The notes under the pieces were generated by a model. That model searched no databases. It had not been told where the DNA came from and saw nothing but the letters and a program-made list of their open reading frames with translations. Both the position numbers and the translations under genes were made by a program. Of a stretch of DNA of 64,000 bases, positions 9,991 to 63,099 are shown piece by piece (position 1 is the first letter of the stretch; every line of letters starts with the position of its first letter). The stretch lies in contig OZ018321.1 of the NCBI GenBank assembly GCA_963969495.1, forward strand, positions 131,162,293 through 131,226,292. Direction: 5' to 3'. The DNA comes from Ceratothoa steindachneri. Lineage: Eukaryota > Arthropoda > Malacostraca > Isopoda > Cymothoidae.

Positions 9991-10110
9991 TTCACTCAAC
10001 CTCTTGACAAGACTTCTGCGTTTCTATCTCACCCCTTCTAGGACCTGTCGGTAGGGAAGATTGAGCCTACATAAATATCCATCCGGACGGAGCCATATAT
10101 GAACCTTGGG

Positions 10111-10160
10111 GCTAACTCGGCGTAGGCCGAAGCTTAGCACGGACGGGTTGGACCTGTGTG
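10111..10160 (+). other. Paired hairpins in LINE 5' leader (copy 2)
   Basis: An outer stem GCTAA/TTAGC encloses an inner stem TCGGC/GCCGA with loop GTAG. A second hairpin pairs ACGGG with CCTGT through one G-U pair around the loop TTGGA. The same arrangement recurs in three other leader copies in this window. Confidence 0.6.
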
Positions 10161-10374
10161 AGCGGCGGATCCCCGTGGATGGAGCACAACCTATGAGGGC
10201 CACTAGATGTTAGGTAGCAAGGTAGGGTTTACCAACACGTTAGCGAAATAAGCCAGAGCAATAAATGGATTTCAGCCGCACTTTTTATAATATTTCTATT
10301 CCTCTACATTTTTCCTTTTCTCTCTTAACATTTCCGATGAAGAAAATGAAAAAGAAGAAAAGAGAATAATCGCC

Positions 10375-11850
10375 ATGGAATCATCGATAAGGGTTCCTTT
10401 GCGCCCCTTGAAAGTTGCGCAAAAGCCCAACAGGACATAGATATTTAGAAAAATCTAAAGCGAACTAGGAGTTGTCCCCATTATGTTACTGGACTACGCC
10501 ACGACTAACGTCGCAGTTTGCCGAACGGAAAATGACGTAGATAGGATTAGAGCCCAAAGTCTCTTCTTAAATCAAGGTTTAAAAGACGATATACTGCCAC
10601 CAGACTGACCCGTAGATCGACAAACATTCAGCTGCCGAAATAAAAGATGAAATTCAACAACGACAGGATTGGCAAAAGTTAAGGAAGTTGTTAAACTTTA
10701 AACCAGAGTTTATAACGAACACTACACCCATGTCTTTAAAATAGTCTTCAGAGAGCCAAACATGGCAAAAAAGCGAGGAAGAATAGACTTTTGGCATTCA
10801 ACCTAAAAATAAAGCAAGATCAAATTAAAAGTGATGAATTAATAAACGTGTAGACCTGCATCACTACCTTTGCTCTCGATAAACATACCTCAAGGGACTG
10901 CCCGAACAGAGATGACAAAAGATGTTCGGAATGCATTTCAAATATGCATACCTGGAGGGAATGCAGAAGCCAGGAAAAGAAAGGCGTAAACTGGGGCGGG
11001 AGCCATCGTACTATGGCGATGGCATACTCGATAAAGAAAGAGATTATAGAGAGAAAAAGAAGAGAAAAGGCTAAAATGGAGGAAGACAAGAAGAATGAAA
11101 CTTATGCTAAAGTAGCAAAAGCTACAACAGAACAGCTCCAGCCTACAAGGAATACCATAGAGCTCAAACAATAAAAATCGTCAAATATACTGGTGTGTAT
11201 ATTACACGCCCACGTAATGAACGTAGCTCCTATTCAAAAGCACCTAAATGTTGAGAAACAATGGGTTAGAACTAATGTAGCTCCAGGAGAATCTCCCTTC
11301 AGCAGATGTTCTGAATATGAAATACAGTACAGTACACCTCAGATAATATTACACCCTCAGCTAAAATCGAGGCTCCAAGTAAGAACACAGATACCATTCT
11401 AGGCGCACAAAGGGACCCTAGACTTACACAAAAGAAGTCGCATGCTGCGGAAGAAATGATAGAGGTGGAAGCACCATCATCCAGTGTGAGAAACAGAGAA
11501 ACACCCCAAGAAAGAAAACAGTAGAAAGAGAGGAAGTAGGTGATGAGGATAAAGAGAGAAGAGAATTCAACTTGAGATTCTACGCTGCAGAAGATTTACT
11601 TTTCCCAATTGCAAACATCAAAGAAATTACCCAAGGAATAAAGAAAAGTCTTTACAAATATGAATTCGAGGGACCCTACAAGGATATTGAAGTTAGCAAA
11701 ATCATCGTGAGTGGAGGCATCAAAATCTCCAAAGAATTGTGTTTCCCTATACAAAAAGAGGAATTTAAAAAGAAGAGATGTGGGAGAACAAAGTCCCCCT
11801 CCGACGTGGAAATAAAAAAAACAAAGAACTCTTCCATAGGCCAATAAGAG
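10375..11850 (+). pseudogene. LINE copy 2 ORF1 (Gag-like, zinc knuckles)
   Basis: The ATG at 10375 begins a Gag-like ORF that aligns with the starts at about 14199 and 28716. The middle (about 10855-11035) carries the knuckle block: a first knuckle degraded to CITTFALDKHTSRDC, a second CSECISNMHTWREC, and a third reduced to GSHRTMAMA with its first cysteines lost. A Lys/Glu-rich coiled segment follows (about 11030-11150). The C-terminal domain, 11572-11847, is open and contains YKDIEVSKIIVSGGIKIS, also found at about 25040-25110. Several stops split the frame. The product would bind element RNA. Confidence 0.8.
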
Positions 11851-11858
11851 CACACAAA

Positions 11859-13779
11859 ATGGACAAAGGGAGAAAACTGAAAATAGTAAGCCAAAACATA
11901 GCAGGATGGGATGCTAAATGTCATTCGTTATGTAATGCATACTTAAAGTTAGATCCGATGGTTATCATCCTAAATGAAATCAACATTGACCCGGAAATCT
12001 ACCCTATGAAAATATATCATTATCGAAATTTGTACAAGACTACTATAGATACTAATTTCGATGGGGTAGCTATGGCCATAAGAAACTAAGTAAGATTTCC
12101 CAGGCTACAAAAGCTTGACGAAGCTTACCTTGCAAACAAGATTAAAACGTCCACAGGGGATATACTCTTAATGACGGGGTGCCAACTCCCAAGTAGGGAC
12201 TACATGCCAATTTATAACTTTATGGAAATTTTCGGCAAGTGACTAACTTTTATTATGGGAGATCTGAATGCTCGCACCAGAGCTTCCGGTTACACCGGAA
12301 ACTACAACAACTCAGGCAAGAACTTAGACACCTTATAAGAATCAGTGCGGAATTCCCAATATATTTTGGACTAAGGAGAGCCACGAAACTAGACATAGTG
12401 CTAGCGTCGCCTAACTTTCGGTACAATTACTTAATTGAAAGAGGCCCTCCATCCACTAGTGACCATTAAATGGTGATAATGAAGATCATAGCAGACCCCA
12501 TACAGGTAAAATGCCCCATCAGCAAAGACTTCAAGAATGCCAACCTACACGAGTACGCCGAAGATCTGGCAAATTACCAACAGCCAGACTTTGGCGAGGC
12601 TACGCTGGAGGAAATAGATTTAGCCACAGATAACTTAATGTAAGCATTAATTGAAGCAGACCTCAAGCACGTTCTAAGAACAGCGTTCAGAGCATTCTCC
12701 CCTTTCCCCCGCGCATACACCACAAATTGCTGAGCTGGAGAACAGATACAAAAACCTAAGAAAATCAATGGAGCATTCGGTCCTCAAAGAAGTGATAGGT
12801 CACGCCTACTTAATATAAAAAACGAAATTACTGCTACACTTGCAAGAGAAAGAGGCGCCAGATGGGATCAGTTTGTCGAAGCGATAAACGAAGAGCTCAA
12901 TCCTACGAAACTTTGGCAAAGAGGCAATCTGGCTAGAAGCATTAGAAAACCCTAAATGAAGCTAGCCATGAAATATAATGGGATAGAAATACGAGAACCA
13001 CAACAAATAGAAGCCGCGTTTAGAGAGCACTGGTGCAAAGTATTTGATATATCCCCAGAGGAAAACGAAGATTTTGATCAGGAACACAAGAACGGAATAA
13101 TAGAAGACCTAGAACGGAACAGAAGAGAGATAATACCTAATGAAAAATCAAGGTGTCAAGCTAATGAATCTTGAAGAGCTAAAAGACACTCTAAAAGCTA
13201 CCAGATAAAGCACCCCTGGTAGTTCTGGGATATCCTGTGAGAACATGGTGAGAAAACTGGATGTGTTTCTCACCAAAATATCCGAACTGTTCACCAATCG
13301 TTACCAATAGTACGTACAAGCATGCACTGAAAATGGTCAGGATAACTGCGGCCGAAATTGCAAACATCAATAATTTTGAGAAGTGGTAAATCCAAACGAA
13401 CGCTGATAAGTTAGTTATTATCCCAATAAGAAGACGAAAAACGTGAAGAGTGGGGTTAAACGACGAAAGATACAGATATCATAAATATGACAAAGTCCTC
13501 GGGCTCATGGAAACCATCAATGGTTATAGGAAAGATCTTGCAGTAAGGATAAACCTAGATAAGGCCAACTTAGGAAAGATGTACCAGCTCAAAAACCTAA
13601 ACACACATAATAAGATCAAGGAAAAAAACATAGATGTACTACTCAACGAAGAAGAAAAAAGGAAATTGGAGATTCCCATAGATTATCGGGAGAACAATAG
13701 GGGAAAAAATCTTCCTAGCGAAGATTTTGTAAGCTATCCAGATTTTCCCCTCTTAGAAGTGAGATTCAACGTTAATTAA
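11859..13779 (+). pseudogene. LINE copy 2 ORF2 (endonuclease; RT incomplete)
   Basis: From ATG 11859 the APE endonuclease is well kept: KLKIVSQNIAGWD is the N-terminal strand, and ILNEINIDPE holds the catalytic Glu of the NE motif. FDGVAMAIRN ends at a stop at 12089. In shifted frames follow GDLNAR (about 12260), ATKLDIVLASP and TSDH (about 12460), the late Asp and His of the fold. The region between endonuclease and RT is intact to about 13190. The catalytic palm is absent. The last piece, 13450-13779, is open for 109 residues and matches the C-terminal regions of other copies (KANLGKMYQLKNLN). Confidence 0.85.
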
Positions 13780-13814
13780 ATAAGACCGCAGAAGAGACAT
13801 TTAACGCGTGGCAG

Positions 13815-14327
13815 AATCTTAACGAGACACCTTAGAAGGACAATCTTTCCTTTCCTGGTGACCCTTCTTAGAGCGAGTAGGTTACGAAAGCTTAAAATCT
13901 CCATAGATACCCCTCAAAGAGGAGACTTATCTGAACCTTACGAGTAACTCAGCGCAGGCTGAAGCTTAGCAAGGGATGGATTAGACCCGTATGAGCAGCG
14001 GATTTGAGCGTGGTGGGAGCAAAGACTGTTAGGGCTAGGTGTTAGGTAGGCAGGTAAGGCTAGCGATTCGCCAGGTGAATAAGCCAGACAACTGGTTATA
14101 ACAGCACTTTTTATCTGCCTTTAGCCTCTCTCTACTTTTCTTTTTCTCCTTTCGGCCAATGAAGAAAATCAAGAAAAAGAAGATAGGACACCGCAACAAT
14201 GGACTCCACAAAACAGGTCCTTTTGCGCGTTTATAAAGGCGCACAAAACTCAATCGAACAAATGTATTTCGGATAATATATGGTGAACTCGGAGTTATGT
14301 AAGTGAGATTACTAGATTACTCCACTC
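13815..14327 (+). mobile_element. LINE copy 3, 5' leader and ORF1 start, interrupted by LTR element B
   Basis: This is the leader and first residues of ORF1 (ATG near 14199) of the same LINE family, lying head-to-tail after copy 2. Similarity to the leader and ORF1 of copy 2 holds up to 14327 and stops exactly where the LTR begins with TGT at 14328. The likely continuation is the ORF1 C-terminus that reappears at about 25030, beyond the nested LTR elements. The middle of ORF1 is missing, so the right junction is not a simple insertion boundary. Confidence 0.75.
13942..14000 (+). other. Paired hairpins in LINE 5' leader (copy 3)
   Basis: The inner stem is TCAGC/GCTGA with loop GCAG. Compared with TCGGC/GCCGA in copy 2, both partners changed and pairing is kept, a compensatory change. 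The second hairpin pairs ATGGA/CCCGT imperfectly (one mismatch, one G-U). Confidence 0.6.
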
Positions 14328-15472
14328 TGTAAAAGAACAACCTCTGACCGCCACTTCCCCCAATTTATTGGAAACCACGTGCTATGGTATCACGCAATGG
14401 GCGACGTCATTTCCTGTTCGAACATTCTCTAATTTTTGACACCTGAGTACGTTGGGAAAATATTTCCCAATCCTGCGAACTCGTCCCAAGTCCCCCATCA
14501 TCCTGTGACGAGGTGTGAAAGAACAACTCTGTCTCACCCTTGCTGCTAAATGATTAATCGACTCCGCCTCCGGATTAAAATGTCTGGAGCTTGTGACTCC
14601 TTTATCTAAACTCCCCTTTTTCCCTCAGAATCGGGCCTACAAATGCTCGGGCTATTCTGTAGTTCGACGAGTCAAACCAGCATCTCAAGGCCGTCCTTAT
14701 CGTCTCGTCCCGTGAGCGTTAGTCGGACAGCAGCCTTATTCAGCTTTGATTCTACCCAAGTCAATTGGTAGCTTCTGTGAACGGCAAGCCTTTGAATTTG
14801 CGCAACACGTTTAATCGAGCCGAAGAAAATCTCCATCGATTACCTTTGAGAAAAAGAAGATTCCTCTTTCAGTGGAATTACGAGAATGCCCACATTCCCC
14901 GTCGAACATCATCTTTGAAGTTTGGCTATCTTCATTGGAAGGTTGATTCAGATCGTGCTCAACCTGCCTAATCGGATCGTTTCCCACTCGACTCATTGCA
15001 AGAAGGACCTTCATCGAAGTCATCGACCCGTAAGACTGAACCCCTCTTCATTATTAGTATTGTCAAGTTCCCCCTTTTGATCTGAGCCTAGTTACATTAA
15101 TAAATTAATTCCATTTGAAAATCCCTCCTGATAATAATTATCAGGAGACTCTTTCAATTTAAATAAGTCCCCTTTGCCGATTATTATAATAAATTTTGAT
15201 CTTTGTAAATAAAATTATATTTTTGTTGTTTCATCTTTAACTAGCCTTGGACAATACTCTCGGCCTATTAAAGTATATCTCGCCAACCATTTATGCACTC
15301 TGATTGATTATTGAAGATTTGAAACCCAACGCCTTCAGTTTGACCTCCTACTTGGTCGTTAATCTCTGCGAACAGTCCTTCAACGGTTCTCGTTGCAGTA
15401 GGTGATTAAGTCAATCTCCAACATACTCGTAATATAGGAGTAGTGTATGGTATAGAGTGGTTGTACCACGAC

Positions 15473-15473
<1 letters not shown>
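14328..15473 (+). repeat. 5' LTR of Ty3/gypsy element B
   Basis: The segment starts TGT at the point where LINE homology ends and finishes with CCACGACA at 15473. It is followed by a TA tract and a primer-binding-like site, which fixes the 3' edge. Its length is about 1146 bp. A near-repeat of the start, TGTGAAAGAACAAC, occurs at about 14515, so that is an alternative left edge. It contains no long ORF of its own. The ending resembles that of element A (TACGACA), pointing to related elements. No matching 3' LTR was found, consistent with loss of the B 3' end. Confidence 0.65.
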
Positions 15474-15559
<86 letters not shown>

Positions 15560-15596
15560 CTTCTATATTAAAGAACTGGTGTCAAGTGTGTGAGGT
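15474..15596 (+). other. (TA)n spacer and primer-binding-like site of element B
   Basis: An 85-bp TA tract directly follows the LTR. After a short linker comes TGGTGTCAAGTGTGTGAGG (15577-15595). This begins with TGG, as expected of a site complementary to a tRNA 3' CCA end, and aligns with the equivalent site of element A at 18367. The primer tRNA is not identified. The distance from the LTR (over 100 bp) is unusual. Confidence 0.55.
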
Positions 15597-15989
15597 CTAT
15601 TACATATTAAATCAGTTTAGTTGATTTACATCCATTTTGAGTTTTAGTAGTTTCTTCTCATTAATTATTGAAGTTTCTTTTATATTTTGGCGGAAGTCGT
15701 GCAAGTTAGTTCTAGATCAGTAGATCGTTAGTCTATTAACTATTTAAAATTTAGATTATTAGTCGGGACTCGTTCTGTGTGTTTGTGTATTCCATTTACC
15801 GGAATATTTGAGTTAATCCTAACCCTGATTATAAAGATTTACCCGCCCTAACCGTGTAGGAAGAGTTCTAGTGTGATAATTTTTGAATATTCATTTTTGG
15901 AAAAAGTTAGGCTTCACGTATATTGCCGAGTAGTTCCGTTACGTCAATAGCCCCGTTCACGTATTACGTTACCCCTTAGTAAGCCAACA

Positions 15990-16888
15990 AGATGTCTTCG
16001 TTTGGCCGTTTCAAGGGTCAATGAGAGTCGTTGGGCCTGTCGGGCCAAGAATTATTAACTTATATTCAAGAAGAAGGTAAAAATGAAAGAGAAGAGAGAA
16101 GAACAAAGGAACAAGAACCAAGAAAAGCTGAAGAGGAAAGAGCAAAAGAACTAAGAGAAGCTGAAAAGAGAAGAGCAAGAGAACACTGAGAGATGGAAGA
16201 GAGTGAGAAAATAAGGCAGCATGAACTAAAATTAAGCCGTAATCAATTCGAGTCAATATCGGTTAACTCTGGGACCGAAACTTCACATTCCCCGTCAGTA
16301 AGATTACCCATCTTTCAAGAAGGAGAAAATTCTGGATCATATCTAATGCATTTCAAGAAGATTCTTTAAATCAACAATTGGGACATTGAGGAAGATGGTG
16401 TCGTTAAATTGTTCACTCTCCTAAACTCACAGTTGAGATACATATTCATTTCCCTTCCGTCAGAGGCCACTGTGGACTACTCTACCCTCAATTCTAAACT
16501 CTTAGCTGCCTTAAATATGACCCCAGACTTCTATCGTGCACGTTTCCGCCACGAAAAGATCCGCCTCGCCATCTTGGGTATACCCTCCAGAAACACCTCC
16601 AATTTTGGTTAGCTGCGTGTAAAGTCCTCCAAGAGTACGAGTGCCTTCTGGACTTCGTCCTAAAAGATGAATTCTTAGCTTCCCTGACCCCCCAAATCCA
16701 TGCCTTCGTTAAGAACAAGCGCTGTTCTACGTTCAAGGAATGCCTAGAAGAGGCTGATATTTATGCAAGTAGCCATAATTTGTATCAAAAAGTTAATAAA
16801 AAGCCTCCCCCGTCTCCTACCAAGTTTAAGATTAATAACTCCAGGCTCCCTCTAAGAAAAACCCCTAGACTCGTGAAAGTTCAAGGCC
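15990..16888 (+). pseudogene. Element B Gag: coiled coil plus SCAN-like capsid
   Basis: The start near 15990 (MSSFGRFKGQ, then a stop, then ESLGLSGQELLTYIQEE) is homologous to the Gag start of element A. A Glu/Lys/Arg-rich coiled coil follows (about 16065-16230). Next is a capsid-like domain with VRLPIFQEGEN, FTLLNSQLRYIFISLPSEA and LNSKLLAALNMTPDFYRARF. These resemble the SCAN-like Gag domains of some Ty3/gypsy elements. Such proteins form the particle around the RNA. Several stops and frameshifts break it. The insertion of element A separates it from its zinc knuckle, which resumes at about 22895. Element A has lost this capsid part. Confidence 0.7.
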
Positions 16889-16893
16889 CCTCG
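16889..16893. repeat. Target-site duplication CCTCG, left of element A
   Basis: CCTCG immediately precedes the TG of the 5' LTR and recurs at 22824-22828 directly after the CA of the 3' LTR. Five base pairs is the usual duplication length for Ty3/gypsy integrases. Confidence 0.9.
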
Positions 16894-18343
16894 TGTGATA
16901 GAACGAGTTAATTTCAACTCCTATCCCATATTATTAAAAACCACGATGCTGCCCACGTGCATCTTCGATTCGAGGCTTGGAGTCTTATCTCAGCTACCGG
17001 ATGCCAATGTTTAAACAAGGAGGTTATCGTCCCCTAAAGTTCGCCCCCATACGCCGACCTCGCCAGATCGAGTTAGGCTTATGAACAGATAAGGCATTTT
17101 TCTCCGGCCCGGCTGTGCGTTCCCTCCAAGCTTTCACTCCATTTTCCCCCACGCCAAGGAGATGTCCTGGCTATTCATATGGAAACTTTACCAATAAGAT
17201 CAGATTGGAGATCCAGATTTTCGTCGCGAAACATCACCACGACCCTCTCTCCCTTTGTGCGCCAAGAGACCTCGACCTCGAGATTCACCATCACTTGTCC
17301 AGAAGGAGGACAATATTCCTTGAGTGCCAAAGGTTCGAGCCTTTCCGACGCCAAGTCCCAAGGCTTCGCCCCCCTGTTGTTCAAGGAGAACAGCATTAGA
17401 ACAGCCATTGTTCGTTTTGAGCCCTTCGCCAAGAAACGGTTCTCATCCCCCCCCCCTGTTGTTCAAGGAGAACAGCATTAGAACAGCCATTGTTCGTTTT
17501 GAGCCCTTCGCCAAGAAACGGTTCTCACCCCCCCTGTTGTTCAAAGGAGAACAACATTAGAACAGCCATTGTTCTTGAGCCCGTAGACAAGAGACGGTTC
17601 TCATCCCCTCCCTTTGTTCAGAAGAGAACAACCTAGAACAGCCATTGTTCGTTTTGAGCCCTTCGCCAAGAAACGGTTCTCATCCCCCCCTGTTGTTCAA
17701 AGGAGAACAACATTAGGACAGCCATTGTTCTTGAGCCCGTAGACAAGAGACGGTTCTCATTCCCCCCTTTGTTCAGAAGAGAACAAAGTAGAACAGCCAT
17801 TGTTCTTCAAGCCGTTCGTCGAGTAACGGTTCTCCTTTCCAAGACGCCTCGTCAGGATCCTTTTATCCCCCCCCCCCTTCGGCTGGAACTCGCCAGCGGA
17901 CCGAATATTTCATCAAGTACCTTCCACCTCACCCTATTGAAAAGTTACGTAAGCCAAACGTCACCTTTTGAGTATTGATCCCTTTTTGTCAATTCTATCC
18001 TGTGCTTTAAATTGTTTATCGAACCATCCCATCTCTTTAACTCTATATTTGTTTTACCTTTTTTAATCCCTTAAATCCTTGGATTAGCCCGAGTCTCCAC
18101 GACCCTTTCCATTCTGTTTATGTCAATATTTTCCCTTTTTGTGTATCGTTATAGTTATTATTAATAAAACTCTATTTTATTAATGATAGCAATATTATTA
18201 TCCTTGAGCTCAGTTCCATTTCTTAAGCATATCGAAGATACATAATATCGGCCGCCAGACAGTAAACGCACTCTAAAGATAATTAAGGAAGTTCCCTCAA
18301 CAAATAGTATATATATGGTATCGTCGGGAGTCATTCTACGACA
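16894..18343 (+). repeat. 5' LTR of element A
   Basis: The LTR runs from TGTGATAGAACG to TTCTACGACA, 1450 bp, almost identical to 21377-22823 and to the inverted solo LTR at 61557-63099. A candidate TATA-like segment lies in CTTATGAACAG near 17077 (TTATAAACAG in the 3' LTR). An AATAAA occurs near 18163. The middle has six tandem units of about 78 bp. Open stretches within it are by-products of the repeats and are not reported as genes. Confidence 0.93.
17378..17835 (+). repeat. Six tandem units (about 78 bp) inside the 5' LTR
   Basis: Each unit follows the pattern poly-C, TTGTTC, a short gap, GAGAACA, AGAACAGCCATTGTTC, about 25 bp of variable sequence, then ACGGTTCTC. The TTGTTC/GAACAA and GAACA/TGTTC pairs make each unit a set of short palindromes. 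Two sub-types alternate: one with TTTTGAGCCCTTCGCC and one with TTGAGCCCGTAGAC. The 3' LTR also has six and the solo LTR seven, so the array changes in copy number. Confidence 0.85.
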
Positions 18344-18386
18344 TATATATATATACTATTTAAATTTGGTATCAGGTGTGTAAGGT
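18344..18386 (+). other. TA spacer and primer-binding-like site of element A
   Basis: TATATATATATACTATT separates the LTR from TGGTATCAGGTGTGTAAGG (18367-18385). Element B has the same order with a longer TA tract, and the two putative sites agree at most positions. In most LTR elements the primer site begins 0 to a few bases after the LTR, so the spacer is unusual. Confidence 0.55.
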
Positions 18387-18713
18387 TTAACGCTATATCT
18401 TTGCAAACACTGGTCTCAGTCGAGTAAAGCATAGTGTTATTCGTTATAATAATAGAATATAGTAGTTCCCTTTTGTTTTAACGATTGCTATCCCTCCTTT
18501 TTTTTAAAAAACTTAAGAAGCTGGAGTAGCTCAAGGAACGGTTATAATAATTTGTTTGTGTTTTTTTTTGTGATTTTAGTCAGTGGTTATTTAGATTGAG
18601 AAACCAAGTACGAATAGTACAGTGCCCATATTTAGGTAGGCTAATTCTATAGAAGCATAATTCTTGTTGCGAGGAATTTTAGTTGGTTGACTAGTGCGCC
18701 CCCAAGTGCAAAG

Positions 18714-19000
18714 ATGACTCAGTTTGAAATCTTTAAAGCGCAAGGAGAGTCCTGTGGACTCTCCGGAAAAGAACTAATTGAGTACATTTAAGAGGAGCAA
18801 AGAAAAGAGGAAGAAAGAGAAAAACAAAGAAAAGAGGAAGAAAGAGAAAGAAAAAAGGAAGAAAGAGAAATACAACGAGAAGAAAGAGAAATACAACGAG
18901 AAGAAAGAGAAAGAGAGGAACGGATAAGACAAGCTGAGCTTCAGATTGAATTAGCTCGGATTAAAGCAGAAGTTCAAAGAAAAAAGGTAGAAAAGTTAGA
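18714..19000 (+). pseudogene. Element A Gag N-terminus (coiled coil)
   Basis: ATG 18714 begins MTQFEIFKAQGE, then LSGKELIEYI and a TAA at about 18789. Element B has Gln at the equivalent position, so this is probably a point mutation to a stop. A long run of Glu/Lys/Arg heptad-like repeats follows (18795-18985) and predicts a coiled coil. A frameshift near 18990 in an A-rich run moves into the frame of the next ORF. The capsid domain seen in element B at 16290-16620 is missing, and the coil joins a Pro-rich stretch before the zinc knuckle. Confidence 0.7.
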
Positions 19001-20953
19001 GAAAGAGAGGAACGGGAAAGAGTAATCCAACGAGAAGAACGAGAAGGAAAAATACAACGAGAAGAACGAGAAAAAGAAATCCAACGAGAAGAAAGAAGGA
19101 CGGACTCGCGCTCCTTCCCAGGGAAGCTGACAAAGTTTCCGAGCCCCGTAAAACCCCAAAACTTCTTTCCCCAAAACCAACAACGGGACTCCAAACCTCC
19201 CGTTAAGACTTCTCCTCCATCTCTCTTCCCGAAGCGACCAACCATATGCTTCACCTGTGGTGTAGAAAACCACATGAGCTGGAATTGCCCCCAAAATTCT
19301 AGGCTTAAAAGCGGACCAGCCCACCAAGTTCACCAGATTAATGCGACCCCGGCTCCCCCGGTGGTGCAGACCCAAGCAGAAACTTCTCCCCCTCCGTCAG
19401 GCCACCAGGTAAATTTTGTTTTTGGTAAAAGTTCATCGGGAACTTTGAAATATGAGAAGGGCAGCGTAGACAGCTGTCGAGTATCGACTCTCGTCAGGGA
19501 CACAGGATGTACGTGCTTCATCGTGTCCGACGAACTCCTCCCAGTGGCCTCTAACCACGAAAAATTTGCGGTGGTACATGACCAACTTGGGCGGGCGAAC
19601 CGATTCCCCGTCGCTAGATGTTACCTGCAGTGTCAATATTATAATGGCTGGGCTGAAGTCATTGTAGCACCCATAAAATTCTGTTCCGTACTTATAGGAC
19701 AGAGCTTCCAAGTAAGTTTCGACCCTGTGTTTCAGGCCGCCCTTCCTCAAGGCCGAGATAAGAAAGAAGCCCAGGAGCCCGTCCCCATCAGAACCCCGAT
19801 ACCGTCCGATTTCTCGGAGACCCCTAACCAGGACTTTAGGACGGCAAAAGAGGAGTGTGAATCACTAAAACCCTTAGGTGATAAGGCCCCAGACAAGGAC
19901 ACGGAGACTGTCCCTGTACCCCAAGAAAAAAAGAACCCCCAACGCGCCCATGGAGATACCTTCGTAGAACTGGACGAAGCATCGGCGCTTGAAGAGGATT
20001 GCCCCGCAGAGTCACTTAATGTAATCCAGACAGTGTGCATCCAACCTGATGCCGATTACCCTCCTCTTTCCCTACCAGGCGAGTCTTTAGAACCTTCTAA
20101 CCTGGATAGTGACGCGCAGCTGACACCACGTCCGAAGAGTCAGCTACAAGAACTAATTAAATGGAATCACCATTTACCCCCCCTATTAGTTCTTTTCGAG
20201 CAACTGCGTGAAAATGGCCTCACCATTGGCCCCAGCAAATGCCATTTTGCTCACGAAACCATCAAATATTTGGGTTTCAAAATAGGACAAAGCAAGTTAG
20301 GTCCCCACGAGAACAAGATTAAGGCAATCGCCCACATGCCCCTCCCGATTACAAAGAAGCCATTAAGATCGTTCCTAGGATCAGCTTCTCCCTATCAGCG
20401 ATTTGTTCCGAATTTCGCTGCAATTTTGGCCCCCTTATGCCCCCTTCAGGAAAAGAATTTCCCCGATCGTTTACGTTGGAATGATGTCGCTGTTTCCCAT
20501 TTTAATCAGCTCAAAAGTAAGTTCATTTCTGCCCCCATTTTAAAGTTGCCCAACCCGGAAAAATCCTTTGGGATTAAGACCGACGTGATCAACGAGGGCA
20601 TTGGAGGTGTACTCCTTCAATACGTGGATGACAGAACGAGTCATCCAGTTGCATATACTAGTCTTCAATTATTACCACGCGGAAAGAGATATGCCACTAG
20701 AGAAAAGATAGCTCTATCAATTATCTGGGTCATAGACAAATTCAAGCTGTACTTGATATGTAAAGAATTTCGAATAGGAACCGACCACCGTCCGTTAGCC
20801 TATATTAGGAATTTGAGACACTCAAACGGCCGCATCATGCGCTGGAGTTTACTCTTGCAAGAGTATCAGTTTAAAATAAATTAGATAAAAGGTTCCGATA
20901 ACCAGGTCGCTGACGCCCTCAGTAGAAATGCGTTACCGAATAGCGTAGAATAA
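19000..20953 (+). pseudogene. Element A Gag zinc knuckle - protease - RT thumb - RNase H polyprotein
   Basis: One frame is open from about 19000 to a stop at 20882, and continues after it to 20953. The order is: coil end; zinc knuckle CFTCGVENHMSWNC (about 19249-19290); aspartic protease with DTG at about 19499-19507; and an acidic linker. A conserved peptide with LTPRPKSQLQELI follows, then the RT distal part with GLTIGPSKCHFA and KYLGFKIG. RNase H has KTDVINEGIGGVLLQ, REKIALSIIW, TDHRPLAYI, and after the stop DNQVADALSR. The RT palm and all of integrase are absent, and no integrase follows RNase H. The string YVDD at about 20625 lies in RNase H and is not the RT active site. Confidence 0.85.
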
Positions 20954-21376
20954 TTGTATTCATAGGATTAGTATCTCCATGTAGGTATATACCGTCTTGT
21001 ACGACTTAATTTAAGATTCTTTTGTAATATAATTAATTAATGTATATGTCTGAATTTTGTAACGCTCAATGTCTAATTTTTTGTATGTCTATATATTTGT
21101 TCTTATTAATTTACGTATAAATTATTTTGTCCCGTATGTCCTAAGTTTATATCATTTCATTGTTCCATGCCCTTTTTTTTTCTTTGATTAAGTTGTAATA
21201 AAGGTTATTTTCCCCTGTAATCTAAAGATCAAAATAATCATATGTATTGAGGTAATACTAGTTAGGTGCAGGAAGGTACGGTTGGTACAAGAAAACGAGT
21301 TCCCTACAACGGAGCTCTATCGTTGTCCCTTCTCTCTTTTTTTTTCGAAGTGACAACTTCCCCTGGAATGAAGGGG
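20954..21376 (+). other. Element A 3' untranslated region and polypurine-like tract
   Basis: These 420 bp between the end of RNase H and the 3' LTR hold no coding signal. The last bases before the LTR, GAATGAAGGGG (21366-21376), are purine-rich apart from one T, and could prime plus-strand synthesis. Confidence 0.6.
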
Positions 21377-22823
21377 TGTGATAGAACGAGTTAATTTCAA
21401 CTCCTATCCCATATTATTAAAAACCACGATGCTGCCCACGTGCATCTTCGATTCGAGGCTTGGAGTCTTATCTCAGCTACCGGATGCCAATGTTTAAACA
21501 AGGAGGTTATCGTCCCCTCCCGTTCGCCCCCATACGCCGACCTCGCCAGATCGAGTTAGGCTTATAAACAGATAAGGCATTTTTCTCCGACCCGGCTGTG
21601 CGTTCCCTCCAAGCTTTCACTCCATTTTCCCCCACGCCAAGGAGATGTCCTGGCTATTTATATGGAAACTTTACCAATAAGATCAGATTGGAGATCCAGA
21701 TTTTCGTCGCGAAACATCACCACGACCCTCTCTCCCTTTGTGCGCCAAGGGACCTCGACCTCGAGATTCACCATCACTTGTCCAGAAGGAGGACAATATT
21801 CCTTGAGTGCCAAAGGTTTGAGCCTTTCCGACGCCAAGTCCCAAGGCTTCCCCCCCCCTGTTGTTCAAGGAGAACAGCATTAGAACAGCCATTGTTCGTT
21901 TTGAGCCCTTCGCCAAGAAACGGTTCTCATCCCCCCCCCCTGTTGTTCAAGGAGAACAGCATTAGAACAGCCATTGTTCGTTTTGAGCCCTTCGTCAAGA
22001 AACGGTTCTCACCCCCCCTGTTGTTCAAAGGAGAACAACATTAGAACAGCCATTGTTCTTGAGCCCGTAGACAAGAGACGGTTCTCATCCCCCCCTTTGT
22101 TCAGAAGAGAACAACCTAGAACAGCCATTGTTCGTTTTGAGCCCTTCGCCAAGAAACGGTTCTCATCCCCCCCTGTTGTTCAAAGGAGAACAACATTAGG
22201 ACAGCCATTGTTCTTGAGCCCGTAGACAAGAGACGGTTCTCATTCCCCCCTTTGTTCAGAAGAGAACAAAGTAGAACAGCCATTGTTCTTCAAGCCGTTC
22301 GTCGAGTAACGGTTCTCCTTTCCAAGACGCCTTGTCAGGATCCTTTTATCCCCCCCCTTCGGCTGGAACTCGCCAGCGGACCGAATATTCCTTCAAGTAC
22401 CTTCCACTGCACCCTATTGAAAAGTTACGTAAGCCAAACGTCACCTTTTGAGTATTGATCCCTTTTTGTCAATTCTATCCTGTGCTTTAAATTGTTTATC
22501 GAACCATCCCATCTCTTTAACTCTATATTTGTTTTACCTTTTTTAATCCCTTAAATCCTTGGATTAGCCCGAGTCTCCACGACCCTTTCCATTCTGTTTA
22601 TGTCAATATTTTCCCTTTTTGTGTATCGTTATAGTTATTATTAATAAAACTCTATTTTATTAATGATAGCAATATTATTATCCTTGAGCTCAGTTCCATT
22701 TCTTAAGCATATCGAAGATACATAATATCGGCCGCCAGACAGTAAACGCACTCTAAAGATAATTAAGGAAGTTCCCTCAACAAATAGTATATATATGGTA
22801 TCGTCGGGAGTCATTCTACGACA
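21377..22823 (+). repeat. 3' LTR of element A
   Basis: The LTR is 1447 bp from TGTGATAGAACG to TACGACA. It differs from the 5' LTR at scattered single bases, by CCC in place of AAA near 21519, and by poly-C length in the tandem units. It carries six of the roughly 78-bp units at about 21857-22310. It ends at the right copy of the CCTCG duplication. Confidence 0.93.
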
Positions 22824-22828
22824 CCTCG
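22824..22828. repeat. Target-site duplication CCTCG, right of element A
   Basis: Right partner of the duplication at 16889-16893. Element B sequence resumes here, with its zinc knuckle about 70 bp downstream. Confidence 0.9.
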
Positions 22829-23480
22829 GAACCAAGAGACATTAAGCCTATAATTACCACTTCCCCCGCTTTGTTATTCCACAGAAGGCAGATAATCTGG
22901 TTCACCTGCGGAATAGAAGGTCATGTACGCACGAACTGCCCTCAAAATTCTCAATTTAGAAGCATGTCTCCAATCAGGTACACCAGCTTAGTGCCACTCC
23001 TGCTCCTTTCCACTCTCTTCAAGATACCACTACGTCTCTCTCGTCGACCAACAACTCCGGTCAGCAAGTAAATTTTATCTTTAATAAGAGCTCACCGGTG
23101 GTTTGATATTTGAAAATGGAGCCGAGAACAGATGCCTTGTGTCCACCCTTGTACGTGACACTAGGTGCACATGCATCGTGGTACCGAGAATTTACTTCTT
23201 TCAGTCGGTCCTGACAACCAAAAGTTCACTGTAGTCCATGATTACCTCAGCCGAGCAAATTGTTTCCCTATGGTAAAATGCCACATCGAATGTGGGTATT
23301 TGACTGGTTGGGTCGAAATGGTAGCAGCCCTAATCAAGTTTTGCTATGTACTGATTGGAAAGAGCCCCCAGGTTACAAGTAACCCGGTAGCACAACCCAT
23401 GGTAACCCGTGTCGAGGCCACCAGGATTCCCTGGAACCCGTTGCTTTACAAAACCCCGTCGATCCGGAGATCAAGACCCT
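22824..23480 (+). pseudogene. Element B zinc knuckle and protease
   Basis: This is the continuation of the Gag-Pol of element B after the insertion. A zinc knuckle with WFTCGIEGHVRTNC (about 22909-22945) is followed by NCPQNSQF, closely like element A. At 23110-23190, in shifted frames, lies CLVSTLVRDTRCTC, the protease active-site region, where the Gly of the DTG triad has become Arg. The longest open piece starts at 23165 and gives the rest of the protease (VHDYLSRANCFPM and YVLIGKSPQV). Frameshifts separate the pieces. Confidence 0.75.
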
Positions 23481-23699
23481 CTGGGAGGAGGATTTTGCCC
23501 GCACCCAAAAGGGGTGCGCAACTCTCCTTCCCATTTAAGAGAAAGCCAAGACTCAGGAGCAAAAGTCTTCCCGTGTTAGAAAAAGCATCTCATACACACA
23601 CTTTGTGTATTCCCCGCTCTCACGTCCTCCAATCCTCCAGATTTGTCACGATAGTTTATTCTTCGGTCATTTTAGTCATAATAAAACCTCTCAGAGGGT

Positions 23700-24360
23700 T
23701 TTTAAGTATTTTTAATGGCCAGGTGCGGCTAGAGCAATTTTAGAGTATTGCAAATCATGCGATGCCTGCCAAAGGACATCTGCAAAAGGGCGCATCAAGC
23801 CAGCCTCCCTTCCGAAAAGCCCGATCATCTCGGAACCTTTTTCTCATTGAGCCATTGATCTAATTGGCCCTATTCATCCCCCGTCTAGTAAAGGACACAG
23901 TTACGTCCTCCCTTTGATAGACTTCACTACTCGTTTTTCTGAGGCAGTTTCTCTTAAACGCATTGATAGCGTTTCGTGCGCCGAAGCCCTCATTTCCATT
24001 TTTTCTCGGGTAGGAATTCCTAGAGAGGTATTGTCGGATCGAAGAAGATAACTTACCTCCGAGCTTATAGAGTATGTCGGGAAGCTCCTCATGGTAAAAC
24101 CTCTCCTTACCACCTCGTACCACCCAGCCGCAAACGGCGTTTGCAAAAAGCTAAATGGCTCATTGAAAGCAATCCTCAGAAAATTGTGTATCGATCAGCC
24201 CCGAGAATGGCACCGCTTTTTACCCGTGACACTGTTTGCGTTTCGTGAAATCCCCCATAGGACCCTAGGGTTCGTCATCTTCGAATTACGGTATGGCCGT
24301 AATGTTCGAGGCCCCCTTGCTATTTTCGAGGAAATTTTACCAATCCTCGTCTAGATAACG
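23700..24360 (+). pseudogene. Element B integrase core
   Basis: This is a retroviral-type integrase. The end of the zinc domain is CKSCDACQRTSAKGRI at about 23748-23800. The core has AIDLIGPIHPPSSKG with the first catalytic Asp, then VLPLIDFTTRFSEA and VGIPREVLSDRR with the second Asp. In the third motif, HPAANGVCKKLNGSLKA, the position normally held by the catalytic Glu reads Lys. Stops occur after SEPFSH and after SDRRR. The gene lies upstream of the RT start at about 24889, the reverse of the order in most Ty3/gypsy elements. Confidence 0.85.
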
Positions 24361-24720
24361 AAATCCAATCATCCTATTCGTATCTCCTAGACCTCCGAAA
24401 GCGCCTCGAGATATGTGCCGATATCGCGTATCAAAATGCTGAGGTATATTTGGAGAAGTATCGAACTTATTTCTTTCTAATGGCGAAGGAAAGAAGATTT
24501 AAGCCTGATATGGAGGTGCTGTTGCTATTTCCCACGGAGAGTAACAAATTCCTTAGCCAGTGGAAGGGCCCCTTTTCCGTTTTAGAGGTAAAAAGACCAG
24601 TGGATTAACTGATTTGAACCCTCTCAGGAGATAAGGGTTTCCACAGCAATAAGTTAAAAAAATATCACCGCCATGCGTGTATCAACAATATTGTGGCCTT
24701 CGATGAAGAGTCCCCCTTGG
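24361..24720 (+). pseudogene. Element B integrase C-terminal domain (GPY/F-like)
   Basis: In broken frames, RRFKPDMEVLLLFPTESNKF is followed by SQWKGPFSVLEVKRPVD, then SGDKGFHSNKLKKYH. This is the usual end of integrases of this class: a basic strand, the GPF turn and the KLKKY tail. It is continuous with the core upstream and confirms that a whole integrase once stood before RT in element B. Confidence 0.75.
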
Positions 24721-24739
24721 AAGCGGTGTATTCGCTGAC

Positions 24740-25030
24740 CCCTTCAATGTCGTGAATTTAGTATGTATTGAACAAAATGGTGATTACCATATCCCATCTT
24801 TACCTGGACCCGGACTCATCATCCTCCGTACTGGATGTCTCCCCCAGGCTAGCACCTCTTCAAAAGAGTCGCCTGCAACAATGGTAAAATGTATTTGAAG
24901 ATGTCATCTCCAAGACCCCCGTTTGCTCCAATCAATTTGAGCATAACATCGTCTCTACTACTCAAGAGCTTGTTCGCTCGAAAACCAGATGGGTGCCAGA
25001 GCGAAAAGTTCAGAGCCATTGTCAAGATGC
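24740..25030 (+). pseudogene. Element B linker and start of reverse transcriptase
   Basis: NLVCIEQNGDYHIPSLPGP (about 24760-24815) matches the linker of element A (VCIQPDADYPPLSLPGE), which lies there between protease and RT. It is followed by SSKESPAT and, in another frame, FEDVISKTPVCSNQFEHNI and TRWVPERK. These resemble the N-terminal segment of Ty3/gypsy RTs, where the strand before the fingers binds the template. The remainder of RT, RNase H and the 3' LTR are missing, and LINE sequence begins at about 25030. Confidence 0.65.
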
Positions 25031-28000
25031 CCACTAAAAGTATGACTTTGAGGACCCATTCACAGACACTGAGCTCTCTAAAATTATAATAAGTGGCAAT
25101 CTGGAAATTTCCTAGGACCTGTGCTATACGGTAAAAAAGGAATTTAAATAGAAAAGAAGCGGAGGGACAAAATCACCCGTTGAACGGGAAGCTCATAAAC
25201 CTAAGAGAAGATCAGGTTTCGAAGTGAGAAGATCGAAATAATGCCTCAAATTATGAAAATAAAAATATTCACAATGTAACAGGATGGAATGAGAAAAGAA
25301 TCTGATTAAGCAACACCTATTAAGAGGAGGACACGGAAATTATACTACTGAACGAAATGAATATAGACCCAAAAGCGAATAGATCAAATTATACAATTAT
25401 GCCATCTTAACGTAAACCACCAACGACATCAATTTCGATGGTTTTGCATTATCAATGCTTCAAGAAACTCAGAGACTTGAAGGAAACTTATTTGGAGATA
25501 GGCGTAAGGACTTCTATAAGAAATCTTTTCATCATGAGGAGGGACTTCTTGCCCTTCGAAAACTTTGTGGAAGTGTTTGGACAAAAAGAAGAGGCAGTTT
25601 CATGGGGGACCTAAAGGCCCGTAGTTGAGCTTCTGGTTACACTCGAAACTACAATAAGGCGGGCATAGGGCCCGAATTTCCAACTTACTTTGGGCCAAAC
25701 AGGGTCACGAAGCCCGATATAGTCTTAGCAACTCCAGACTTCCAATATAACTATCTCATTGAGAAATGGTCCCCACCAACAAGCGACCATGAGATGATAG
25801 TTCTGACTCTATCTCGAGATCCTATTTAAGTCAGACAGCCCACTAGGAAGTCGTACAAGAACCCTAATTGGAACAGATATTCAGAAGATCTGGCTAGACA
25901 CCGGCAGATAGATTTATTGGAAGCAACCCTAGGGGAGATAGATCAACGACTCGATAACTTGATGGAAGTGTTGATTGAGGCTGACAAGAAGCACGTCCCA
26001 GTTGCGGCATACAGAACACTACGGCACCCACACATGATGGGCCAAAGTAAAAACCTTGAACAGCAATATATCTTCTTGAGAGAAGCCATCGAACATAACG
26101 GACCCCAAAGGGGGGACAGGGCACGGTTGCAACAGGTGAAAGACGAGTTGATTACTGCAACTGCGTTAAAAAGAAGTGCAATGTGGGATCGAGGCATGGA
26201 GGCAATGGACAGCGAATTAAATCCAACCAAACTGGCACAAAATGAACATTACGAGAAGCAAGAAACAAGCTAAGTCCAAACTCGAAATCCACCAGGACGG
26301 GGCAGAGGCGAAAGAGCCCCAAGAGATCGAAGCAGCTTTCCGCGAAAACTGGAAGGGGGTGTTCAATATTCCACCTCATGAAAACGAGGAGTTCGATAGA
26401 GAACAGGAACTAAGGTTGGTTGATAAACTAGAACAAAATTGCCTCGAAATCCTCCTCAATATTGATGCATCTCCAACGCTTTTAGAGGAAGAAGGTATCA
26501 AACTGGTTTCTCTCTAGGTACTGAAAAGAACACTGCTGGATACCTACAGATGGCGCCCGGGGAGTCAGGATTAACAAAGGAGAATCTGGTACCAGCGCCA
26601 GACTCCTTTTGAATAATATAGTACTACTGCTTAACGCCACAATTAGTGCAGTCTTTTTCCCGGCGCAATGAAAAAATGGAAAATTATATTCCTGCCGAAA
26701 CCCGGCAAGCCCATTAAGAGAGCGGGACATTTAAGTCCAAATACATTATTGGAAACATTGGCGAAACAATTGGAAAGAGCGATCAATTACAAATTGATCA
26801 GACATCTGGAAGAATAATCCCAAATATCGAACCACCAGCACGGGTTAAAAAAAATACAGAAGTACCTAAACGGCTCTGGCCGTTCCAGTTAGAAAAATAG
26901 CGAAGGCAAAGTTCGACAGCATTATACCGACATTGTACTTAATGACGTCCAAAAACTTTTGATAAAGTTTGGAGGATCGGCCTTAAGTACAAAATCAGAA
27001 GATAAGGGCTAGCTTCAACCCTAGTAAAATGCCTTTGCGACTAAGTTACAGATAGATCCGACTATATTTTGGTTGAAGGCTTTGACGAACCGAGCTTCGA
27101 GGTCCCTCAGGAGGTCCCTCAAGAGGGCTGCATAAGCCCAATACTTTCCCGCATTTTCACGAAGGTTTTACCAAGCCAACTCAATGTCTCCACGAAGTAC
27201 AAAACCTCGTTGCGACTAGCGCATAAAGGTATGCTCCAACAATGGCGAGGATCACGGCAGCCGAGATCGCAAACATCAACGATTACGAGCGCAAATGCAA
27301 GATCCGCACAAATGCTGATAAGTTCTCCATTATCCCCATAGGGAGCATAGTGAGATGCAAGACCTCCAGAGTACAAATAGAAGACAAAAGGTATCGTTAC
27401 GAAAACGAAAGAAGAGTGATTTGGCCCGAGATCTCCCGACACGGCTACGGGCAACACGAAACAGAAAGACTCCGTCTAGCGAAGGCGAACTTAACTAAAT
27501 TGTTGTAATTTAGAGGCCTAGAAAGAGAAAATAAGAGGAAGATATACAATGCTATCAGGAGAGCCACACTGCTATACCCAGCAGTCCCGATGAATAGACT
27601 CCACAATACAAATGCAGTTAATCTTCATATGTTCCAAAACGCAGCAATCTCTATCATTACAGACACTAGAAGAAAAGAGCATAAAAAGTAAAGAGACTTA
27701 CACAGTGAAATAGACCTTTCATCCACAAATGTTCCCTTCACAACAGAGCTTGCAAAGTATGGAACAAATAAAAGAACATACTTAGCTAGCAAGAAAAATG
27801 AATTATGGGAATCCCGCAAAACTACAGGATCAACAACCAAGGAAATTTCAGGAGCGGGAAACCTGACACGAGAGAAGAACCGCCTCCAATATTCACAAGT
27901 AGATAAGATTGCTAAGCAATTGTACAAAAATCAAACAAGATAATCTGCATTAGACAAGTAAAATAAAAACAAAAACAAACAAAGAAACATAGAGGCTTGA

Positions 28001-28180
28001 GAGCATCCAACTAATGAAGACAGAAGACTGAAGAAAAATAATCTGCAAGAAGAATCCAGGAGATGGCTGGTCACCCAGCAACGAACACTAATTCTCAACT
28101 CATTCCTTCTCATTACTTTACCTAAACACTCACTGTCCACTCTACTCTTAATATATACTTTTATCTTCAATTTATTTCAA
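25030..28180 (+). mobile_element. LINE copy 3 (continued): ORF1 C-terminus and ORF2
   Basis: LINE sequence of the same family resumes with the ORF1 C-terminal domain (about 25038-25240) and runs through ORF2 to about 27940. It is the natural downstream partner of 13815-14327, with the nested LTR elements between. The middle part of ORF1 is not present on either side, so a deletion accompanied or followed the insertion of element B. The 3' region carries A-rich segments with AAAC repeats near 27960-27985. Confidence 0.75.
25241..27940 (+). pseudogene. LINE copy 3 ORF2 (endonuclease, RT, C-terminal region)
   Basis: Starting at ATG 25241, the endonuclease pieces are VTGWNEKRI, IILLNEMNIDPKA with the catalytic Glu, a degraded form of GDLNAR at about 25603, and TSDHEM at about 25788. 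The long open stretch 25917-26273 is the linker between endonuclease and RT. RT traces follow (WKIIFLPKPGKP at about 26677; VPQEGCISPILS at about 27113). The post-palm segment ITAAEIANINDYERKCKIRTNADKFS is kept at 27250-27330. The C-terminus includes KANLTKLL and KRKIYNAIRRATLLYPAVP, interrupted. Many stops make it inactive. It is the closest relative of copies 1 and 2 by shared segments. Confidence 0.8.
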
Positions 28181-61556: not shown

Positions 61557-63099
61557 TGTCGTAGAATGACTCCCGACGATACCATATATTACACTATTCG
61601 TTGAGGGAACTTCCTTAATTATCTTTAGAGTGCGTTTACTGTCTGGCGGCCGATATTATGTATCTTCAAAATGCTTAAGAAGTGGAACTGAGCTCAAGGA
61701 TAATAATATTGCTATCATTAATAAAATAGAGTTTTATTAATAATAACTATAAACAATACACAAAAAGGGAAAATATTGACATAAACAGAATGGAAAGGGT
61801 CGTGGAGACTCGGGCTAATCCAAGGATTTAAGGGATTAAAAAAAGATAAAACAAATATAGAGTTAAAGAGATGGGATGGATCGATAAACAATTTAAAGCA
61901 CAGGATAGAATTGACAAAAGGGATCAATACTCAAAAGGTGACGTTTGGCTTACGTAACTTTTCATTAGGGTGCAGTGGAAGGTACTTGAAGGAATATTCG
62001 GTCCGCTGGCGAGTTCCAGCCGAAGAAGGGGGATAAAAGGATCCTGACGAGGCGTCTTGGAAAGGAGAACCGTTACTCGACGAACGGCTTGAAGAACAAT
62101 GGCTGTTCTACTTTGTTCTCTTCTGAACAAAGGGGGGGGAATGAGAACCGTCTCTTGTCTACGGGCTCAAGAACAATGGCTGTTCTGATGTTGTTCTCCT
62201 TGAACAACAGGGGGGGTGAGAACCGTTTCTTGGCGAAGGGCTCCAAACGAACAATGGCTGTTCTAGGTTGTTCTCTTCGAACAACAGGGGGGGGATGAGA
62301 ACCGTTTCTTGGCGAAGGGCTCAAAACGAACAATGGCTGTTCTAATGTTGTTCTCCCTTGAACAACAGGGGGGGGGGGGGAAGAGAACCGTTTCTTGGCG
62401 AAGGGCTCAAAACGAACAATGGCTGTTCTAATGTTGTTCTCCCTTGAACAACAGGGGGGGGGGAAGAGAACCGTTTCTTGGCGAAGGGCTCAAAAGGAAC
62501 AATGGCTGTTCTAATGTTGTTCTCCCTTGAACAACAGGGGGGGGGAGAGAACCGTTTCTTGGCGAAGGGCTCAAAACGAACAATGGCTGTTCTAATGTTG
62601 TTCTCCCTTGAACAACAGGGGGGGGGGGAAGCCTTGGGACTTGGCGTCGGAAAGGCTTGAACCTTTGGCACTCAATGAATATTGTCCTCCTTCTGGACAA
62701 GTGATGGTGAATCTCGAGGTCGAGGTCCCTTGGCGCACAAAGGGAGAGAGGGTCGTGGTGATGTTTCGCGACGAAAATCTGGATCTCCAATCTGATCTTA
62801 GTGGTAAAGTTTCCATATAAATAGCCAGGACATCTCCTTGGCGTGGGGGAAAATGGAGTGGAAGCTTGGAGGGAACGCACATCCGGGCCGGGGAACAATG
62901 CCTTATCTGTTCATAAGCCTAACTCGATCTGGCGAGGTCGGCGTATGGGGGCGAACGGGGGGACGATAACCTCCTTGTTTAAACATTGGCATCCGGTAGC
63001 TGAGATAAGACTCCAAGCCTCGAATCGAAGATGCACGTGGGCAGCATCGTGGTTTTTAATAATATGGGACAGGAGTTGAAATTAACTCGTTCTATCACA
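61557..63099 (-). mobile_element. Solo LTR of the element A family (inverted)
   Basis: It is the reverse complement of the element A LTR, from TGTCGTAGAATGACTCC to TCTATCACA, 1543 bp. AATAG lies on both sides (61552-61556 and 63100-63104), so it is a complete insertion that lost its interior by LTR-LTR recombination. It is about 93 bp longer than the LTRs of element A, mainly because it carries seven rather than six of the roughly 78-bp units (about 62090-62630). It is otherwise very similar by eye. Confidence 0.93.

What the first reader, a model, noticed from the sequence alone, without database searches (positions are those of the whole stretch)
14328..25030. Ty3/gypsy element with integrase upstream of reverse transcriptase (Gmr1-like order)
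Seen: in element B the integrase core (23700-24360) and its GPF/KLKKY tail come before a linker and the first RT segment (24740-25030). In element A the same linker precedes the RT distal part and RNase H, and 420 bp of non-coding sequence then leads straight to the 3' LTR. Known: most Ty3/gypsy elements end with integrase, while the Gmr1-like group has integrase before RT, as in Ty1/copia, although its RT is of gypsy type. Inference: A and B belong to that group, and the SCAN-like capsid and long LTRs are part of this lineage.
Basis: partly seen in the sequence, partly recalled or inferred. Interest (0 to 1): 0.75.

Follow-up and report, generated by a model that had tools for sequence, protein, structure and literature searches.

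The report
Broken retrotransposons with integrase-first order
The window holds two damaged, nested jumping elements whose cut-and-join enzyme (integrase) is encoded before the copying enzyme (reverse transcriptase), a swapped order already described as the Gmr1-like group; their shrimp and crab relatives show an unexpected change in the copying enzyme's active site that deserves a test.

Summary
Element A (LTRs 16894-18343 and 21377-22823, 15 substitutions in 1446 aligned bases, 5-bp target duplication CCTCG) is inserted into the Gag region of older element B (14328-16893 and 22824 to about 25112). B reads Gag, protease, integrase with GPF tail, linker, start of RT. A keeps zinc knuckle, protease, the same linker, the end of RT and RNase H, then about 430 bp to its 3' LTR without integrase remnant. 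Neither copy holds a whole RT. Relatives settle the order: B's integrase and A's RT/RNase H map onto the same full-length proteins, integrase first. Of 140 fetched proteins 98 are integrase-first, 13 integrase-last, 29 show only one of the two; 84 of 84 with five domains are colinear. This is the known Gmr1-like organisation, already reported from decapods (PMC3587641), with its known SCAN-like capsid: a new member of a known kind. Unexpected: in these relatives RT motif YXDD reads YFDN in 90 of 93 readable stretches. Engineered Asp-to-Asn changes there abolish transposition of Ty1 and Ty3. The window's copies have lost that stretch, so this concerns the family, not these copies.

The parts
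14328..15473 (+). 5' LTR of element B, 1146 bp, single copy; TG...CA ends resemble those of A
   Evidence: ends read from sequence; no second copy in the window, so the LTR is inferred
15992..16893 (+). B Gag, left part: coiled N-terminus and SCAN-like capsid, broken by stops and frame changes
   Evidence: two capsid pieces match 78 and 85 of 98 integrase-first relatives at E<1e-3, 0 of 13 integrase-last; Pfam SCAN 0.0091, below cut-off
16889..16893 (+). target-site duplication CCTCG, left copy (A into B)
16894..18343 (+). 5' LTR of element A
18714..18964 (+). A Gag N-terminus and repetitive coil, interrupted; capsid missing
   Evidence: read from sequence; no capsid match in A in the 25 proteins listed
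18965..20884 (+). A open reading frame, 639 codons: zinc knuckle, protease, linker, end of RT, RNase H
20006..20089 (+). linker of A shared with B; in B it follows integrase
   Evidence: 46% over 28 residues
20162..20926 (+). A RT end and RNase H
20950..21376 (+). A stretch without coding matches, running to the 3' LTR; no integrase remnant
21377..22823 (+). 3' LTR of element A
22824..22828 (+). target-site duplication CCTCG, right copy
22824..23068 (+). B Gag resumes: zinc knuckle (0.0047, below Pfam's cut-off)
23115..23440 (+). B protease remnant, broken
   Evidence: similarity to relatives; no Pfam hit
23488..24351 (+). B integrase: zinc-binding part and catalytic core, broken by stops
24303..24605 (+). 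B integrase C-terminus with GPF motif
24734..24817 (+). B linker between integrase and RT
24888..25034 (+). B start of RT (matches reach 25112 in 3 of the 25 proteins listed), then truncated
61557..63099 (-). solo LTR of the A family, TSD CTATT, pieces 91-95% identical to A's LTR

Best explanation
A and B are defective copies of Ty3/gypsy-type LTR retrotransposons of the Gmr1-like organisation: LTR, Gag with SCAN-like capsid and zinc knuckle, protease, integrase (H2C2, catalytic core, GPY/F tail), linker, RT, RNase H, untranslated tail, LTR. Shown here: the order, the nesting of A in B, the Ty3 type of both enzymes, and the placement of A with integrase-first relatives. Inferred: the element copied itself as LTR elements do (packaging of RNA by Gag, reverse transcription by RT/RNase H, insertion by integrase with a 5-bp duplication). 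The permuted order arose inside the gypsy lineage by moving integrase, not by taking one from Ty1/copia. A, lacking capsid, integrase and most of RT, could have jumped only with enzymes supplied by another copy, unless it lost these parts after insertion.
For: Pfam on pieces; B integrase and A RT/RNase H colinear on the same proteins, e.g. P0092: integrase 483-787, linker and RT start 780-1006, RT end and RNase H 1163-1416; 6 of 6 relatives: SCAN, H2C2, rve, RVT_1, RNase H in this order; 98 integrase-first, 13 integrase-last, 23 integrase only, 6 RT/RNase H only, of 140; 84 of 84 with five domains colinear; P0044 RT 1015-1376 aligns to Ty3 584-944, its integrase 565-817 to Ty3 1087-1341: same domains, swapped order; integrase-first rows with window A on one side of a 100% SH-aLRT branch against 8 conventional rows; B's zinc-domain piece and two core pieces match 98 of 98 integrase-first proteins at E<1e-3, top hits 58-75% identical, against 0, 4 and 4 of 13 integrase-last, top hits 30-36%; LTRs, TSD.
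Against: No intact copy from the host was seen, because its genome could not be searched. The catalytic RT is absent from both copies. B's Pfam integrase hits are below the curated cut-offs. The set of relatives was seeded with an integrase-first protein and the search listed 120 of 684 hits, so 98:13 is not a survey. Many relatives come from unnamed sources, and one (P0085) is labelled as from Cucumispora, which I recall as a microsporidian. No Gmr1, Mag or mdg1 reference was in the tree, only 8 conventional RT rows, five of them one tight cluster; A's branch is long, and SH-aLRT from a quick search is weaker support than a full bootstrap. No integrase tree was built. P0004, a spider integrase-last element, has a sub-threshold SCAN match (21.7 bits), and P0001 and P0004 matched my grown SCAN-like profile, so a SCAN-like capsid is not exclusive to this order.
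Confidence: 0.95

Rival explanations
1. The elements are conventional Ty3/gypsy copies (integrase last), and B's integrase and RT pieces come from two insertions lying side by side by chance.
For: B is heavily decayed and A sits inside it; each piece on its own is short.
Against: B's integrase, linker and RT start run onto the same single proteins in the same order; A has no integrase trace after RNase H; 84 of 84 five-domain integrase-first relatives share the order.
Confidence: 0.02
2. The elements are Ty1/copia elements, or gypsy elements that took a copia integrase, which would give the copia-like order.
For: The protease-integrase-RT order is that of Ty1/copia (recalled; integrase upstream of RT is called Copia-like in passages of PMC6238403 and PMC8220671).
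Against: The integrase is the H2C2 type; that of relative P0044 aligns with Ty3 and foamy-virus integrases. GPY/F lies between core and RT in 85 of 96 relatives tested. RT and RNase H of P0044 align best with Ty3. I put no copia sequence into any comparison of my own.
Confidence: 0.02
3. Element A is one of a family of internally deleted, non-autonomous copies spread in trans by intact relatives, rather than a full copy that lost its parts after insertion.
For: A's LTRs differ at only about 1% (15 of 1446), yet capsid, integrase and most of RT are missing while a 639-codon frame stays open across the losses.
Against: Only one copy with these losses is known; deletion after insertion explains it as well. 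The open frame is not in frame with the Gag start codon at 18714 (read). The only other LTR of the family in the window is a solo LTR.
Confidence: 0.4

Closest known systems
Gmr1-like clade of Ty3/gypsy (Metaviridae), including decapod elements GyRex4, Gychoro2, GyMaja1 and GyLiva4 (PMC3587641, passages read)
   Same: Gypsy elements with integrase upstream of RT; decapod hosts
   Different: Window copies are broken and from an unidentified host; no direct sequence comparison with Gmr1 or the named elements was possible here
Database proteins P0022-P0140 (Penaeus, Oratosquilla, Portunus, Eriocheir, Cherax, Palaemon, Macrobrachium and many unnamed sources)
   Same: SCAN-like Gag, protease, H2C2/rve integrase, GPY/F, RT, RNase H in this order; top hit of A over RT end and RNase H 48% (P0139, P. 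vannamei), top hits of B's integrase pieces 58-75% (unnamed sources)
   Different: Many relatives are long single frames; window copies lack whole domains
Ty3 of yeast (7q5b, 4ol8)
   Same: Homologous RT/RNase H and integrase
   Different: Integrase after RNase H; RT motif YLDD where the relatives have YFDN
Ty1/copia
   Same: Protease-integrase-RT-RNase H order (recalled)
   Different: Different integrase and RT types (recalled; one search shows the Ty3 type of a relative)

Membership tests
Gmr1-like Ty3/gypsy | Integrase between protease and RT | tested here: met
   B; relatives:
Gmr1-like Ty3/gypsy | RT/RNase H of Ty3/gypsy type | tested here: met
   A: Pfam RT_RNaseH 2.3e-28; relative P0044 aligns with Ty3 RT
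Gmr1-like Ty3/gypsy | No integrase after RNase H | tested here: met
   A tail 20960-21376 has no match to 140 proteins at E<=1; integrase-first relatives end a median of 22 residues after the RNase H match, range 0-248
Gmr1-like Ty3/gypsy | Clusters with Gmr1 in RT and integrase trees | not testable with these tools
   No Gmr1 reference obtained; A clusters with integrase-first relatives at 100% SH-aLRT; no integrase tree was built, pieces were compared by BLAST
Gmr1-like Ty3/gypsy | SCAN-like capsid (reported for Gmr elements in passages of PMC4131045 and PMC3424704) | tested here: inconclusive
   B 16.2 bits, below Pfam cut-off 27; relatives 7 of 8 above it; B's capsid pieces match relatives
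Conventional Ty3/gypsy (integrase last) | Integrase after RNase H | tested here: not met
Ty1/copia | Copia-type RT and integrase | tested here: not met
   H2C2 integrase pieces and gypsy-type RNase H in the window; Ty3-type RT and integrase in relative P0044

The most novel reading that the evidence does not exclude
The crustacean Gmr1-like lineage runs on a reverse transcriptase in which the last of the three catalytic aspartates is fixed as asparagine (YFDN instead of YXDD), the very change that abolishes transposition when engineered into Ty1 and Ty3. If so, this lineage lives naturally with two catalytic carboxylates, perhaps through compensating changes elsewhere in RT/RNase H (second-site changes in RNase H partly rescue the Ty1 mutant) or through a different need for speed and processivity. 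The change, like the moved integrase, may be a signature of the clade.
Probability: 0.6. Interest if true: 0.6.

Novelty: new member of a known kind. Interest (0 to 1): 0.35.

Why it matters
The integrase-first order in a gypsy element is known, also in decapods, so the window adds a new, broken member. What could matter is the family-wide YFDN. All 82 integrase-first rows with usable RT and RNase H carry Asn there, over a tree of 36.8 substitutions per site, although Asn and Asp codons differ by a single transition. Passages of PMC2148107 and PMC5371799 report that D211N in Ty1 and D214N in Ty3 keep polymerase activity in vitro but lose transposition. A successful natural lineage with this residue would make the role of the third aspartate directly testable.

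Tried and rejected
Rejected: two adjacent insertions; a copia integrase; an integrase hidden in A's tail. Led nowhere: protein search with the B integrase piece alone (one candidate, none scored); viral contigs with P0044 and with alignment A1 (1 and 27 pattern stretches, none confirmed); genome contigs with A1 (68 stretches, none confirmed), so YFDN could not be tested outside the set. Rfam found nothing. Literature searches for the residue change: YFDN with reverse transcriptase (two E. coli papers, listing only, unrelated by title); YXDD with four other terms (listing of 20 of 39; two of its papers read in passages); YXDN with reverse transcriptase (none); Gmr1 with YXDD (one paper, PMC2582038, not opened); YFDN anywhere with retrotransposon (none). 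In PMC3587641 the terms YXDD, catalytic and aspartate do not occur. All this covers only the held open-licence library. The original Gmr1 paper was not looked for by id and not read; the SCAN-origin paper PMC3209298 and the Ty3 mutagenesis paper PMC546138 are not held, so for Ty3 I rely on passages of the review PMC5371799.
Full report
What is there. Two LTR retrotransposons are nested. A has LTRs at 16894-18343 and 21377-22823 (1450 and 1447 bp; 1446 columns aligned, 15 substitutions, 3 gap events), TG...CA ends, and CCTCG on both sides. It sits in the Gag region of B, whose zinc-knuckle part resumes directly after A's right end. B starts with an inferred LTR (14328-15473, single copy in the window) and breaks off at about 25030-25112. 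A third LTR of A's family at 61557-63099 (minus strand) has CTATT directly on both sides, so it is read as a solo LTR.

The order in the window. In B the pieces run Gag, protease, integrase zinc domain (1.9e-5), integrase core (7.3e-6), integrase C-terminus with GPF, linker, start of RT. The two integrase hits are below Pfam's curated cut-offs (25.1 against 25.5 bits, 26.6 against 32.6), as expected for short broken pieces; the weight lies on the matches to relatives. In A the frame 18965-20884 runs zinc knuckle (below cut-off), protease, linker, the last 36 positions of the RVT_1 model (below cut-off), and RNase H (2.3e-28), then about 430 bp to the 3' LTR. Protease is assigned by similarity to relatives and by a DTG motif in A (read from sequence), not by Pfam. 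A's linker (20006-20089) matches B's post-integrase linker (46% over 28 residues; E 5.9e-4 in a search of B's two stretches only). None of the 140 proteins matches A's tail at E<=1. So A lacks capsid, integrase and most of RT, and B lacks RT from just after its start. The window alone shows integrase before the start of RT in B, and linker before the end of RT in A.

The relatives. A search with A's frame gave 21 proteins. One was an uncharacterised Penaeus vannamei protein (P0014) with Gag, integrase and then, by eye, the start of RT. A search with P0014 gave 684 proteins, of which the best 120, P0014 among them, were listed; both searches scored only the roughly 8000 candidates that shared most words. 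All 140 fetched proteins were scanned with profiles grown from P0023 domains: 98 have integrase before RT/RNase H, 13 after, 23 only integrase, 6 only RT/RNase H. All 13 integrase-last ones come and all 98 integrase-first ones, whose seed is itself of the integrase-first kind, so this is not a census. All 84 integrase-first proteins with five domains are in the order SCAN, H2C2, rve, RT, RNase H; a simple protease pattern lies between SCAN and H2C2 in 76 of 95. Pfam places the domains likewise in 6 of 6 scanned: P0023, P0032, P0044, P0058, P0126, P0136. The acidic residues that I take as the integrase triad are invariant in the 23 proteins aligned; a stricter pattern matched 54 of 98. RNase H ends a median of 22 residues before the C-terminus (range 0-248). 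Aligned with Ty3, P0044 shows the swap plainly: its RT 1015-1376 matches Ty3 584-944 and its integrase 565-817 matches Ty3 1087-1341.

The window elements belong with them. B's zinc-domain piece and two core pieces match 98 of 98 integrase-first proteins at E<1e-3, and 0, 4 and 4 of 13 integrase-last ones; the top hits are 58-75% identical against 30-36%. On single relatives the B right part and the A RT end fall at separate, ordered places (25 best proteins listed). In a tree of RT to RNase H (41 of the 81 integrase-first proteins with both RT-RNase H and integrase usable, 8 conventional rows and window A) the integrase-first rows and A form one side of a branch with 100% SH-aLRT. This was a quick search without bootstrap; A's branch is long, and five of the eight conventional rows are one tight cluster. 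No integrase tree was built, because only 2 integrase-last proteins had a usable integrase.

What is known. PMC3587641 (passages) states that Gmr1-like elements carry integrase upstream of RT and lists four decapod elements, one from L. vannamei, as the first Gmr1-like ones in protostomes. PMC8220671 (passages) reports an annelid family in the Gmr1 lineage; PMC6238403 (passage) names the order as an exception among Gypsy. The SCAN link is known too: PMC3424704 (passage) derives the SCAN domain from Gag of a Gmr1-like element, and PMC4131045 (passages) finds SCAN in over half of frog Gmr elements. The finding is therefore a correct reading of a known kind. The SCAN-like capsid is not a perfect mark of the order: two spider integrase-last proteins matched my grown profile, one of them Pfam SCAN below cut-off.

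The unexpected point. In the RT alignment of integrase-first relatives the catalytic motif C reads YFDN in 90 of 93 readable stretches, otherwise YYDN, YFNN and YFDT once each; 4 further stretches have no residues there. Of 10 readable stretches from the other proteins, none has Asn in the last place: nine end in D, one in A; five of the ten proteins form one tight cluster. P0044's N aligns with the second D of Ty3's YLDD. In 82 integrase-first rows with usable RT and RNase H, all 82 have N, over a total tree length of 36.8 substitutions per site (no YFDT protein is among these rows). Passages of PMC2148107 report Ty1 D211N with kpol reduced 223-fold and no transposition, with second-site changes in RNase H restoring 5-10%; passages of PMC5371799 report that Ty3 D214N keeps activity with substantially reduced processivity, and that all the active-site mutants were lethal for transposition. 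The natural lineage thus carries a residue that fails in yeast elements. Limits: the window copies have lost this stretch; activity of the relatives is inferred from long open frames and clusters with many member sequences; no Gmr1-like RT from outside the set could be examined.

The host. It was not identified. The relatives that carry an organism name are malacostracan crustaceans (classification recalled), apart from P0085 (Cucumispora, recalled as a microsporidian), at about half identity, so a crustacean host is likely but not shown.

Noticed in passing
relatives among P0022-P0140 (not in the window): RT motif C is YFDN in 90 of 93 readable integrase-first RT stretches, instead of YXDD.
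   Followed up: partly
33728-35351 and 35970-37589: Near-perfect inverted repeat of about 1.6 kb per arm (pieces 98-100% complementary, 618 nt between), each arm with a 182-aa ORF that looks like a GIY-YIG end of a Penelope-like element (from memory; Pfam found nothing for the one scanned). Could be two insertions or an assembly fold-back.
   Followed up: partly
61557-63099 (-): Solo LTR of A's family (1543 bp against 1450) with TSD CTATT inside a satellite-like run of TTGAACCCATT-type repeats; it seems to carry more internal repeat units than A's LTR.
   Followed up: partly
17369-17840 and 21850-22323: A's LTRs contain a tandem array of related units of about 75-80 bp (self matches).
   Followed up: no
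P0004 (Araneus, integrase last): Sub-threshold Pfam SCAN match (21.7 bits, cut-off 27) in a conventional-order element: SCAN-like capsids may be wider than the Gmr1-like group.
   Followed up: no
55511-56473 (-); 10071-14316 and 25150-30000: Remnants that look like non-LTR retrotransposons: an RVT_1 match (9.3e-10) and repeated pieces on both sides of B.
   Followed up: no
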